Part shown: piece after piece, positions 34,360 to 37,578 of the stretch
Position numbering within the stretch: the stretch's first letter is position 1
Layout: the number at the start of each line of letters is the position of its first letter
DNA from: Brevibacterium gallinarum
GTDB lineage: Bacteria > Actinomycetota > Actinomycetes > Actinomycetales > Brevibacteriaceae
Assembly: GCF_014836885.1 (NCBI RefSeq)
Contig: NZ_JACSPY010000007.1
Location: 108,170-172,169, forward strand
DNA length: 64,000 bases
Direction of reading: 5' to 3'
Notes under the pieces: generated by a model
Databases searched by the model: none
Told to the model about the DNA's origin: nothing
What the model saw: the letters and a program-made list of their open reading frames with translations, nothing else
Translations under genes and position numbers: made by a program

Positions 34360-34749
34360 TCAGCGCAGCAGCGGAAGGGTCAGCGGGTAGCGGTACTTCT
34401 CATAGCGAGCTGCGGCCATTGCGGCGATGATCGGGATCACGATGCTGACGATGTAGATGACCGCCCAGATGATCCAGGCTGCCGGCAGCAGAATGACGGT
34501 GAAGGCGAGGATCGAGGCAACCATCGACCCCAGCGCAAGGGTGACGGCGAAGTTGAAGGAGCCGGCCGCTGCAGTGCGGACGAGGTCGCTTCCGTCCTTG
34601 TAGATGAACCAGAAGATGAGCGGGCCGACGAAGGCCAGCATCCCGAGGCTCAGCACCGCGGAGATGATGAGCGAGAGGTGGCACAGGATCGCCCAGGTGC
34701 GGTCGGTGGACTGATGGCTGGTCGGGTGCGGGGCGTGTGTCTCGTTCAT
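34360..34749 (-). CDS. DUF4870 membrane protein
   Basis: A 129-residue membrane protein with the DUF4870 pattern: TWAILCHLSLIISAVLSLGMLAFVGPLIFW, then the charged loop FIYKDGSDLVRTAAAGSFNF, then two hydrophobic segments (VTLALGSMVASILAFTVILL and AAWIIWAVIYIVSIVIPIIAAMA), ending YEKYRYPLTLPLLR. It is related to Tic20-like small membrane proteins; role unknown. The start may be ATG 34749 or 34758. It is divergent from the HTH/ABC operon. Confidence 0.8.
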   Translation of the reverse strand: MNETHAPHPTSHQSTDRTWAILCHLSLIISAVLSLGMLAFVGPLIFWFIYKDGSDLVRTAAAGSFNFAVTLALGSMVASILAFTVILLPAAWIIWAVIYIVSIVIPIIAAMAAARYEKYRYPLTLPLLR

Positions 34750-34826: not shown

Positions 34827-34861
34827 TTGACACAAACCAGTTTGCAATACAAACTGGTTTG
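34827..34861 (+). promoter_or_regulatory. Promoter with two palindromic boxes before HTH-ABC operon
   Basis: A perfect -35 TTGACA (34827-34832) is followed by CAAACCAGTTTG (34833-34844), 5 bases, and CAAACTGGTTTG (34850-34861). Each 12-mer is palindromic (CAAAC-N2-GTTTG) and the two are also exact inverted repeats of each other. The likely -10 (CAAACT, 34850-34855) lies inside the second box, and the ATG of the first gene begins at 34863, so the mRNA is probably leaderless. The winged-helix protein at 35522 is the obvious candidate repressor. Confidence 0.75.
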
Positions 34862-34862
34862 C

Positions 34863-35525
34863 ATGAACCAGATACCGCAGCAGAACCCCGAACCGCACGA
34901 TGCCGAGGGCACACCAGCTCTCGACCCGCGTCGCGCTCTGGAGATCGCCACGTCCGGGCAGCGCACGATCAGCCGCCGCGAGCAGCGGGCCGGGATCCTC
35001 ACCTCGCTGCTGTGGTCGGCCATCTGGCTTGTCGGGTACAGCGCCATGGCGGCCGCCTACGTCTTCGGGCGCATGCCCGCTGCCATCGCCGGCATCATCT
35101 TCGCGGCCGGCATGACGGCAGCCCTCATCGCCACAAGCATCATCAATGTGCGCGCAGCCTCCGGCCGACGGGGACCGGCCGCCCGGCAGGGCACGCTCTA
35201 CGGCATCAGCTGGGCTCTCGTCGTCACCGTCATGATCATCGTGAGCATTCAGCTCGGCGCCTACCTGCCGGACCCCGAGGTCATCGGCTGGCTGGCGAAT
35301 GCGATCGCCGTGTTCGGCGTCGGCATCATGATCGTCATGGGCGGCGTCATCTTCGCCGACCGGATGATGTTCGGATTCGGCATCGGGGCGATCGTGGCCC
35401 TCATCATCAGCCTGCTGGTCGGCCCGGAGCTCTTCACGCTCGTCTTCGTCGCCGCAGCCCTGGCAGGACTCATCGTCAGCATCATCGCCCTGGCGCGCAC
35501 CGGACGGGAAGCAGGCCGATCATGA
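34863..35525 (+). CDS. Four-to-six-helix membrane protein, first gene of HTH-ABC operon
   Basis: Unrecognised membrane protein of 220 residues. The first 45 residues or so are polar (MNQIPQQNPEPHDAEGTP, then TISRREQRAGI). Paired hydrophobic helices follow: LLWSAIWLVGYSAMAAAYVFG, AAIAGIIFAAGMTAALIATSI, TLYGISWALVVTVMIIVSIQLG, AIAVFGVGIMIVMGGVIF, then MFGFGIGAIVALIISLLVG and LFTLVFVAAALAGLIVSIIAL. Its start lies directly under the palindromic operator, and its stop overlaps the winged-helix gene as ATGA. It is probably a membrane partner of the exporter, but that is inference. Confidence 0.75.
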   Translation: MNQIPQQNPEPHDAEGTPALDPRRALEIATSGQRTISRREQRAGILTSLLWSAIWLVGYSAMAAAYVFGRMPAAIAGIIFAAGMTAALIATSIINVRAASGRRGPAARQGTLYGISWALVVTVMIIVSIQLGAYLPDPEVIGWLANAIAVFGVGIMIVMGGVIFADRMMFGFGIGAIVALIISLLVGPELFTLVFVAAALAGLIVSIIALARTGREAGRS

Positions 35526-35818
35526 CGGCACTGGATCCGGTCATCCACGCTGACTCGCGCCTGCGCATCATGGCCGCCCTGGCCGGGCTGCCGGCCGGTG
35601 ACGAGGTGCTGTTCACCCGCCTGCGCAAGGACCTGTCGATGACCGCCGGGAATCTCTCCACCCACCTGCGCAAGCTCGAAGAAGCCGGCTACCTCACCCA
35701 GACCAAGACCATCGAAGGCCGCACACCGGCCACCTACCTCTCCCTCACCGCCACCGGCCGCGCAGCCTATGAGACCTACTTGACCAATCTGCGCACCATC
35801 CTGGAAGGAAACCCCTGA
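35522..35818 (+). CDS. Small winged-helix regulator (HTH_34/MarR-like)
   Basis: A 98-residue DNA-binding protein consisting of little more than one winged-helix domain: RLRIMAALAGLPAGDEVLFTRLRKDLSMTAGNLSTHLRKLEEAGYLTQTKTIEGRTPATYLSLTATGRAAYETYL. The recognition helix is TAGNLSTHLRKLEEAGYL and the wing follows. This is the PF13601-type layout. It overlaps genes on both sides (ATGA upstream, TGATG downstream), so it is tightly coupled to the operon and probably binds the CAAAC-N2-GTTTG boxes at 34833-34861. Confidence 0.88.
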   Translation: MTALDPVIHADSRLRIMAALAGLPAGDEVLFTRLRKDLSMTAGNLSTHLRKLEEAGYLTQTKTIEGRTPATYLSLTATGRAAYETYLTNLRTILEGNP

Positions 35819-36762
35819 TGTCACCGACCCCCACCCTCAGCCAACCGCAGCGTACAAACGCGCCCACCTCCTCGGGCACGGCCGCTGTCACCGTCGACAA
35901 CGTCGCCAAGTCCTTCGGCACCACCACCGTGCTCTCGCGCATGAATCTGCGCATCACCCCCGGTGAGGCCGTCGGCATCCTCGGGCCCAACGGCGCAGGC
36001 AAGTCCACGCTGCTCTCCCTCATCACCGGTGAACGGACACCTGATGCCGGCAGCGTGGCGATCTTCGGGGCCAACCCGCGCACACCCGAGGCGCGGCGCA
36101 CGATGGGCGTGACCCCGCAGGCGACTTCGCTGCCGGAGGTGCTCAAGGTCCGCGAGGTCCTCGACTTCGTCGCCGCGCACTACCCGAACCCGCTGTCGAC
36201 GAGTGAGCTGCTCGACGATCTCGACCTCACCGCACTGGCCGGCAAGCAGTGCGGCGGCCTCTCCGGCGGGCAGAAGCGCCGCGTCATGCTCGCTGTCGCG
36301 CTCGTCGGCAATCCCGACATGCTCGTCCTCGATGAGCCCTCGACCGGTCTCGACGTCGAATCCCGCCAGCAGGTGTGGCAGCGCATCCAGGCGTTCAGCG
36401 CAGCCGGTGGCACCCTGCTTGTCACCAGCCACCACTTCGATGAGATCGAGCGCCTCGCAGACCGGGTCGTCATGCTCGCCGACGGGCAGATCATCGTCGA
36501 CGACCAGCTCGAACGCGTCCGCACCGCCGTCGACTTACGCCATGTCACCGTCACGCTACCCGACACCCCCGAGGCGGTCATCGCCGCACTGCCCGGTGTC
36601 ACCGGCATCCAGCCCGGTGAGGGTGCCCGGCAGGTCATCACCTGCAGCGATTCCGATGCCTTCATCCGCGCTCTCATCGCCGAGGGCCTGACATTCACCG
36701 ATCTCGAAGTGCGCGGGGCCAGCCTCGAAGAGGCCGTTGCTGCCCACACCGCAGGTCACTGA
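35818..36762 (+). CDS. ABC transporter ATP-binding protein
   Basis: Cytosolic ATPase of an ABC-2 type exporter, 314 residues. Walker A GPNGAGKS at residues 57-64, signature LSGGQKRRV, Walker B MLVLDEPSTGLD and switch His in LLVTSHHFDEIE are all intact. A C-terminal extension of about 80 residues (from DDQLERVRTAVDLRHVTVTLP) is typical of drug or lipid exporter ATPases. It is translationally coupled to the winged-helix gene by TGATG, and the permease follows 24 bases downstream. Confidence 0.92.
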   Translation: MSPTPTLSQPQRTNAPTSSGTAAVTVDNVAKSFGTTTVLSRMNLRITPGEAVGILGPNGAGKSTLLSLITGERTPDAGSVAIFGANPRTPEARRTMGVTPQATSLPEVLKVREVLDFVAAHYPNPLSTSELLDDLDLTALAGKQCGGLSGGQKRRVMLAVALVGNPDMLVLDEPSTGLDVESRQQVWQRIQAFSAAGGTLLVTSHHFDEIERLADRVVMLADGQIIVDDQLERVRTAVDLRHVTVTLPDTPEAVIAALPGVTGIQPGEGARQVITCSDSDAFIRALIAEGLTFTDLEVRGASLEEAVAAHTAGH

Positions 36763-36786: not shown

Positions 36787-37578
36787 ATGTCCACCACCGC
36801 CGCCCCGGCTCTTTACCTGCCGCATCTCATCTACCGCACCCGCGACACCCTGCGCGTACCCGTCGTCGTCATCTCCGCAGCCGTCTTCCCCGTCATGGTC
36901 TTCGCGATCTTCTTCCTGCCGTTTATGGACGGCACCCCTGCCGACCAGCAGGCAGCCGTCGCCTTGGCCGGGGTCGCCCAGCTCGGGCTCATGGGCGTGG
37001 TGAGCACGTTCCTGTTCAACTACGGCATCGGCATCGCCGAAGAGCGCAAGGCCGAATGGTCCAACTACCTGCGCACCCTGCCGACCGGCCCAGGCCCGTT
37101 CTTCTCCGCCCGCGTGGCGGTGGCGGTCATCGTCGTGCTCATCGCCGTCGTGCCGCTGTTCATCGTCGCGATGGCCGCCACCCCGGTGCTCGAGCCCTTC
37201 GTCGCCGGTGAGCTGGGCTGGTGGCGGCTGGCCGCGCTCATCCCGGCGTGGATCCTGGCTGCGCTGCCGTTCCTGTTCGGCGGGCTGCTCATCGGCTACC
37301 TCGCCACACCGAAGGCTGCGGTGGCGATCACCCAGATCGCCTTCCTGCCCTTCGCCGCTGTCGGCGGGCTCATCCTGCCAGTGCAGGCGATGCCCGGCTG
37401 GCTCAACGCGATCTCCGAGTTCACCCCGGCCCGCCCCGGCCGCGATGCGGTCACCGCACTCATCGGCGAGGGCTCGGTCGACATGCTCAATGTCGTTGTG
37501 TGGCTCGGCTGGCTCGTCCCGCTCATCATCGCCGCCGTGTGGGCGCACCGCCGCGATGAGGGCCGCCGCTTCTCCTGA
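36787..37578 (+). CDS. ABC-2 type permease
   Basis: Membrane subunit of the exporter, 263 residues, with six predicted helices (VPVVVISAAVFPVMVFAIFFLPF, AVALAGVAQLGLMGVVSTFLF, VAVAVIVVLIAVVPLFIVAMA, LAALIPAWILAALPFLFGGLLIG, AVAITQIAFLPFAAVGGLIL and the last WLGWLVPLIIAAVW). The loop MPGWLNAISEFTPARPGRDAV before the last helix matches ABC-2 permeases such as the DrrB/NodJ group. It has an AGGAG ribosome site. It ends the operon; a terminator follows. The substrate is unknown. Confidence 0.9.
   Translation: MSTTAAPALYLPHLIYRTRDTLRVPVVVISAAVFPVMVFAIFFLPFMDGTPADQQAAVALAGVAQLGLMGVVSTFLFNYGIGIAEERKAEWSNYLRTLPTGPGPFFSARVAVAVIVVLIAVVPLFIVAMAATPVLEPFVAGELGWWRLAALIPAWILAALPFLFGGLLIGYLATPKAAVAITQIAFLPFAAVGGLILPVQAMPGWLNAISEFTPARPGRDAVTALIGEGSVDMLNVVVWLGWLVPLIIAAVWAHRRDEGRRFS

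What the first reader, a model, noticed from the sequence alone, without database searches (positions are those of the whole stretch)
34827..34861. Double palindrome inside a consensus promoter of a regulator-ABC operon
After a perfect TTGACA, two 12-base palindromes CAAAC-N2-GTTTG (N2 = CA and TG) are spaced 17 bases centre to centre and are exact inverted repeats of each other. They cover the spacer, the -10 and the last bases before ATG 34863. The third-party regulator is probably the 98-residue winged-helix protein encoded second in the operon. The motif is not one I can match to a named regulon.
Basis: partly seen in the sequence, partly recalled or inferred. Interest (0 to 1): 0.6.

Follow-up and report, generated by a model that had tools for sequence, protein, structure and literature searches.

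The report
Conserved operator of HTH_34 exporter operon
The double palindrome is real. It is very probably the docking site where a small DNA-binding protein switches its own operon, which also encodes an export pump, and relatives in other genera keep the same site at the same place, so it is a well-supported but ordinary kind of gene switch for a protein family nobody seems to have characterised.

Summary
CAAACCAGTTTG (34833-34844) and CAAACTGGTTTG (34850-34861) lie right after TTGACA, 17 bp apart, and are the only CAAAC-N2-GTTTG copies in the 3.17-Mb genome, probably Brevibacterium luteolum or a near relative.
The element is a conserved operator. All 73 orthologous loci fetched, mostly Micrococcales, carry it upstream of the HTH gene, nearly always in the same operon (220-aa membrane protein, 98-aa HTH_34 winged helix, ABC ATPase, ABC-2 permease). 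In a sample of 30 ortholog-bearing genomes, 24 have the strict core and 6 have variants. Background was 0 in 352 kb.
More distant HTH_34 genes in other Brevibacterium, and a second one in this genome, have a sister operator (CTTKCC-N5-GGAAAG), so operator sequence tracks regulator clade. This implicates the HTH_34 protein as the binder and, by inference, as an autorepressor of a near-leaderless promoter. Ligand, sign of regulation and substrate are unknown. It is a new member of a known kind.

The parts
34827..34832 (+). -35-like hexamer TTGACA directly abutting the operator
   Evidence: TTGNNN in the same position in about 18 of 72 distinct orthologous operators, so lineage-specific rather than universal
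34833..34844 (+). first 12-bp palindrome CAAACCAGTTTG (quarter-sites q1 CAAAC and q2 GTTTG)
   Evidence: q1 kept in 49/72 and q2 in 72/72 distinct orthologous operators
34840..34854 (+). central dyad GTTTG-CAATA-CAAAC, the invariant operator core (STTTG-N5-CAAAS); proposed HTH_34 dimer site
   Evidence: only occurrence of STTTGNNNNNCAAAS in the genome
34850..34861 (+). second 12-bp palindrome CAAACTGGTTTG (quarter-sites q3 CAAAC and q4 GTTTG); overlaps the expected -10 region
   Evidence: q3 kept in 70/72, q4 in 27/72 distinct operators
34863..35525 (+). gene 1: 220-aa membrane protein (about 6 predicted helices), no family; start codon 1 nt after the operator, no Shine-Dalgarno sequence visible, probably leaderless
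   Evidence: related protein in 70 of 73 orthologous loci at 24-94% identity
35522..35818 (+). gene 2: 98-aa winged-helix protein, Pfam HTH_34; predicted operator-binding autoregulator; start overlaps gene 1 stop (ATGA)
   Evidence: PF13601 E 5.2e-22
35818..36762 (+). gene 3: ABC transporter ATPase; start overlaps gene 2 stop (TGATG)
   Evidence: PF00005 E 5.7e-30; present in 70/73 loci
36787..37578 (+). gene 4: ABC-2 type permease
   Evidence: PF01061 E 1.6e-11; present in 69/73 loci

Best explanation
The element is the autoregulatory operator of a membrane protein / HTH_34 / ABC-2 exporter operon. A dimer of the 98-aa HTH_34 winged-helix protein (35522-35818) binds the central dyad GTTTG-N5-CAAAC (34840-34854). 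The outer half-sites (34833-34837 and 34857-34861) extend the complex, probably through a second dimer or lower-affinity contacts. The complex covers the spacer, the -10 region and the probable start of a near-leaderless transcript, so it should block RNA polymerase until a ligand, perhaps the exporter's substrate, releases the protein. Shown here: the operator's conservation, its core, its genome-wide uniqueness and its tracking of the HTH_34 gene. Inferred: direct binding, stoichiometry, repression rather than activation, and induction.
For: Only copy in the genome. Conserved upstream of all 73 orthologous loci, which come from several genera, while flanking columns carry mostly under 0.3 bit. 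A 3-quarter pattern finds 12 sites in 149 genomes of the order, 11 of them within 1.5 kb of an HTH_34 ortholog. In that sample 24 of 30 ortholog genomes carry the strict core, with 0 in 352 kb of background. The six exceptions carry variants: TCTG-N5-CARA in four genomes of one genus, whose recognition helix (read in three of them) is NLGAHLRK instead of NLSTHLRK; TTTA-N5-TAAA in L135; one mismatch in L127. Distant HTH_34 genes have their own dyad, typically CTTKCC-N5-GGAAAG, upstream in 24 of 28 loci, and so does the second HTH_34 gene of this genome, where the dyad is single in the genome. The recognition-helix stretch TAGNLSTH is invariant in a 20-sequence alignment. The model is a confident winged helix closest to PH1061 and near MarR/PadR regulators.
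Against: No binding or expression data. The ortholog set is weighted to related genera, so the counts are not independent events. Alignment columns were anchored on the core, although the symmetric four-quarter scan gave the same register in nearly all loci. The C/G identities of paired arms do not co-vary across the core beyond chance. The -10 is weak, so strong unrepressed transcription is not obvious from sequence. Activation cannot be excluded.
Confidence: 0.82

Rival explanations
1. One reading: two separate 12-bp boxes CAAAC-N2-GTTTG, each bound by its own dimer, as ZitR does at TTAACYRGTTAA boxes over the -35 and -10 of its promoter.
For: Both boxes are perfect here, and 16 of 72 distinct operators keep all four arms. 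ZitR binds two such 5-2-5 boxes separately (PMC6372160). The 12-bp AAASTASTTT-type unit recurs with a 19-bp instead of 17-bp period in the sister operators.
Against: If boxes were independent, losing one arm should free its partner; instead 32 of 72 operators keep q1-q2-q3 without q4 and 12 keep only q2-q3. Two paralog loci (L083, L085) have two central-type dyads with no outer arms.
Confidence: 0.2
2. The HTH_34 protein is an activator, or a dual regulator, at this site.
For: The sign of regulation was not tested, and the -10 is far from consensus.
Against: The core lies between the -35 and the start codon, over the -10 region, where bound proteins usually block polymerase (established knowledge).
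Confidence: 0.1
3. A regulator encoded elsewhere binds the site and the HTH_34 protein is incidental.
For: No binding experiment exists.
Against: The site is single-copy in the genome, follows the HTH_34 ortholog across genera, and HTH_34 paralogs have a matching sister site. A distant regulator would be expected to travel with other targets.
Confidence: 0.06
4. Chance or an RNA-level element (hairpin) rather than a protein operator.
For: A 12-5-12 inverted repeat can form a hairpin.
Against: Chance: 0 in shuffles and 0 cores in 352 kb of neighbouring DNA. Hairpin: the predicted start of the transcript is at or near the ATG, so most of the repeat would not be transcribed, and outer arms are lost in many operators without compensation.
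Confidence: 0.02

Closest known systems
FabT (MarR family, lactic acid bacteria) and its box ANTTTGATTATCAAATT
   Same: Core arms and spacing match exactly: TTTG-N5-CAAA (box sequence from PMC10138225). FabT 6jbx is the second PDB sequence match of the HTH protein.
   Different: Regulates fatty-acid genes with acyl-ACP enhancing its binding (PMC9083066); longer protein; NCBIfam FabT score 24.5 against a cut-off of 200. Convergence of a short site is possible.
PH1061 of Pyrococcus horikoshii (PDB 1ub9)
   Same: Closest solved structure by sequence (E 1e-6) and fold (TM 0.83, 1.5 A); recognition helix TPGNLDSHIRVLE resembles TAGNLSTHLRKLE.
   Different: Archaeal; no paper describing it was found in the open library and its operator is unknown to me.
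ZitR/AdcR (MarR family zinc repressors), box TTAACYRGTTAA
   Same: 5-2-5 palindromes, two of them over the -35 and -10 of the regulator's own operon.
   Different: Different half-site; boxes bind independently; zinc ligands were not looked for in this 98-aa protein; conservation here centres on the dyad between the boxes.
DrrAB-type ABC-2 exporters
   Same: ATPase and permease fall in the same broad class (TIGR01188 and TIGR00025 as top or only NCBIfam hits).
   Different: Both well below the curated cut-offs (176 vs 312; 22.9 vs 146.9).

Membership tests
Pfam HTH_34 (PF13601) winged-helix proteins | score above the Pfam gathering cut-off over the full profile | tested here: met
   78.2 bits vs 27, positions 2-79 of 80
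FabT | NCBIfam equivalog score | tested here: not met
   24.5 bits vs 200
FabT | TTTG-N5-CAAA type operator | tested here: met
   core 34840-34854 vs published box; a resemblance of site only
PadR | Pfam PF03551 gathering score | tested here: not met
   21.2 bits vs 27
ArsR/SmtB metalloregulators | NCBIfam HTH_metalloreg score | tested here: not met
   26.9 bits vs 55; the general Pfam ArsR helix model PF01022 is met (27.7 vs 22)
MarR-type autorepressor of a transporter operon (works like) | regulator gene in the operon it controls, with its operator over the promoter | tested here: met
   gene order and conserved operator; the promoter itself is predicted, not mapped
MarR-type autorepressor of a transporter operon (works like) | direct binding and ligand-released repression | not testable with these tools
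   needs protein and expression assays
DrrAB-type exporter | curated NCBIfam cut-offs of DrrA and DrrB | tested here: not met

The most novel reading that the evidence does not exclude
HTH_34 proteins form a family of local, one-operator autoregulators paired with a fast-evolving small membrane protein that acts as their sensor or anti-repressor. The operator is a family-wide nested dyad whose sequence and spacing (N5 core, 17- or 19-bp period) co-evolve with the recognition helix, so it can be read as a specificity code. The ABC exporter is an optional add-on.
Probability: 0.25. Interest if true: 0.55.

Novelty: new member of a known kind. Interest (0 to 1): 0.4.

Why it matters
HTH_34 regulators appear to have no described operator: no paper in the open library holds the term PF13601, and none holds HTH_34 together with winged helix and ABC transporter. 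This gives them a predicted one, with a sister version in a second clade and natural variants that go with recognition-helix changes, so DNA recognition by the family can be tested directly. It also ties an unnamed membrane protein family to the regulator and exporter.

Tried and rejected
Regulon search: no further STTTG-N5-CAAAS site in the genome, so no wider regulon of this exact core. A strict sister-operator pattern across 198 genomes of the phylum found nothing; that sample held this genome but few relatives, and the pattern was probably too specific. Base-pair covariation inside units or core: no support for either parse. Literature: no paper for CAAACNNGTTTG, PF13601 or PH1061 in this sense. 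Pfam and fold searches for the membrane protein: nothing convincing. The divergent DUF4870 gene (34360-34749) was considered as a co-regulated target but is present only in the other Brevibacterium luteolum locus (1 of 73). A Pfam scan of the paralogs' membrane protein failed on coordinates and was not repeated.

Full report
What is there. The window lies in a 3.17-Mb genome whose nearest named relative in the collection is Brevibacterium luteolum (99% identity of the regulator). At 34827-34863 the sequence reads TTGACA, CAAACCAGTTTG, CAATA, CAAACTGGTTTG, C, ATG. Both 12-mers are perfect palindromes and inverse copies of each other. There are two matches to CAAAC-N2-GTTTG in the window against 0 in every shuffle, and two in the entire genome.

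The operon. Gene 1 (34863-35525) is a 220-aa membrane protein without any family. Gene 2 (35522-35818) is a 98-aa HTH_34 winged-helix protein (PF13601, E 5.2e-22). Genes 3 and 4 are an ABC ATPase and an ABC-2 permease. The gene 1-2 and 2-3 junctions overlap (ATGA, TGATG), which suggests translational coupling. Relatives of genes 1, 3 and 4 accompany the HTH gene in 70, 70 and 69 of 73 loci, so the operon is a stable unit. The regulator is the best conserved member: outside B. luteolum it keeps 58-70% identity, against 45-49% for the ATPase and 26-32% for gene 1 in the example loci printed.

Conservation of the site. The 73 orthologous loci come mostly from Cellulomonas, Cellulosimicrobium, Oerskovia, Isoptericola, Promicromonospora, Arthrobacter and related genera. 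A symmetric scan for two boxes, scoring all four arms equally, finds the array at a 17-bp period in nearly all of them, about 350-860 bp before the HTH gene. Aligned on the core, 72 distinct sequences give q1 CAAAS 49/72, q2 STTTG 72/72, q3 CAAAS 70/72 and q4 STTTG 27/72. The TTTG and CAAA columns of the core carry 1.9-2.0 bits and the flanks mostly under 0.3. The patterns of retained arms are q1q2q3 32, all four 16, q2q3 12, q2q3q4 10, others 2. It occurs once in this genome.

Independent sample. In 149 genomes of the order, the three-arm pattern gives 12 sites in 12 genomes; 11 have an HTH_34 ortholog within 1.5 kb. Searching the same genomes for the protein gives 30 orthologs separated by a clear score gap from the rest (88 bits and above, next 61). 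Strict cores lie upstream of 24 of the 30, counting this genome and G019. The other six have variants: symmetric TTTA-N5-TAAA in L135, a one-mismatch core in L127, and STCTG-N5-CARAS in four genomes of a single genus, read by eye. In the three of those four whose HTH was read correctly, the recognition helix is NLGAHLRK in place of NLSTHLRK (the L144 row there is out of register because its locus starts at the contig end). Non-operator parts of the first set, 352 kb, hold no strict core.

Sister operators. Other Brevibacterium species mostly lack a close ortholog but have more distant HTH_34 genes. Of 28 such loci, 24 carry a dyad of the form [CG]TTKCC-N5-GGMAA[CG] or a near variant, mostly 470-690 bp upstream, and none elsewhere in 69 kb. 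Many have the fuller shape GAAAGTACTTTCCA-N3-TGGAAAGTANTTG, i.e. the same nested design with a 19-bp period. The second HTH_34 gene of this genome (G000:C11) has its own copy, CTTGCC-ATCCT-GGAAAG, and that dyad too is single in the genome. In L104 the unit consists of a small membrane protein and the HTH_34 gene; no paralog locus has a relative of this ATPase within 1.5 kb. L083 and L085 have two complete dyads 28 bp apart and no outer arms, which again favours the central dyad as the basic site. The pattern used for this count was drawn from the same loci, so the 24 of 28 is descriptive; the 0 in 69 kb is its control.

Protein. Residues T41-H48 of the recognition helix are invariant in a 20-sequence alignment. 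The model is confident (pLDDT 93). The nearest structure is PH1061 (TM 0.83), followed by MarR, PadR and ArsR regulators, some of them DNA complexes.

Mechanism. A dimer on the core would sit between the -35 and the start codon. TTGACA-N17-CAAACT-N7-ATG fits a near-leaderless promoter; in M. tuberculosis the -10 motif is centred 7-12 bp before the start (PMC3898074), although this -10 lacks the TANNNT form. At least 13 orthologous operators have ATG one or two bases after q4, while others have a Shine-Dalgarno sequence there instead, so the promoter and start context moves and the operator stays. Repression with ligand release is the usual outcome for this layout and is an inference. Outer arms may host a second dimer; this is undecided.

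Comparison. The core equals the FabT box in arms and spacing, and the HTH protein is distantly similar to FabT, but it fails FabT membership. ZitR offers the precedent for two 5-2-5 boxes over -35 and -10. No published description of an HTH_34 operator was found in the open library, which omits many subscription papers.

Limits. Everything is comparative. Loci are phylogenetically clustered, so counts overstate independence, and the recognition-helix correlation rests on a few lineages.

Noticed in passing
G000:C11:70698-70961 and 71529-71545 (L153): A second, distant HTH_34 gene in the same genome with its own single-copy dyad CTTGCC-ATCCT-GGAAAG about 580 bp upstream.
   Followed up: yes
L083, L085: Two complete GTTTCC-N5-GGAAAC dyads 28 bp apart upstream of HTH_34 genes, without the outer arms seen elsewhere.
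   Followed up: partly
L144, L147, L148 (and L149): One genus has two operator copies about 40 bp apart with TCTG/CAGA in place of TTTG/CAAA, and a changed recognition helix (NLGAHLRK).
   Followed up: partly
L104:981-1400 and 1420-1761: Small membrane protein plus HTH_34 as a two-gene unit without this ABC transporter, suggesting that a membrane protein is the regulator's constant partner.
   Followed up: partly
window 34863-35525: Unnamed membrane protein family with invariant Trp and Gly positions, diverging much faster than the regulator next to it.
   Followed up: partly
L103 vs L104: L103 seems to have lost about 300 bp, most of the membrane-protein gene, between the operator and the HTH_34 gene.
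   Followed up: no
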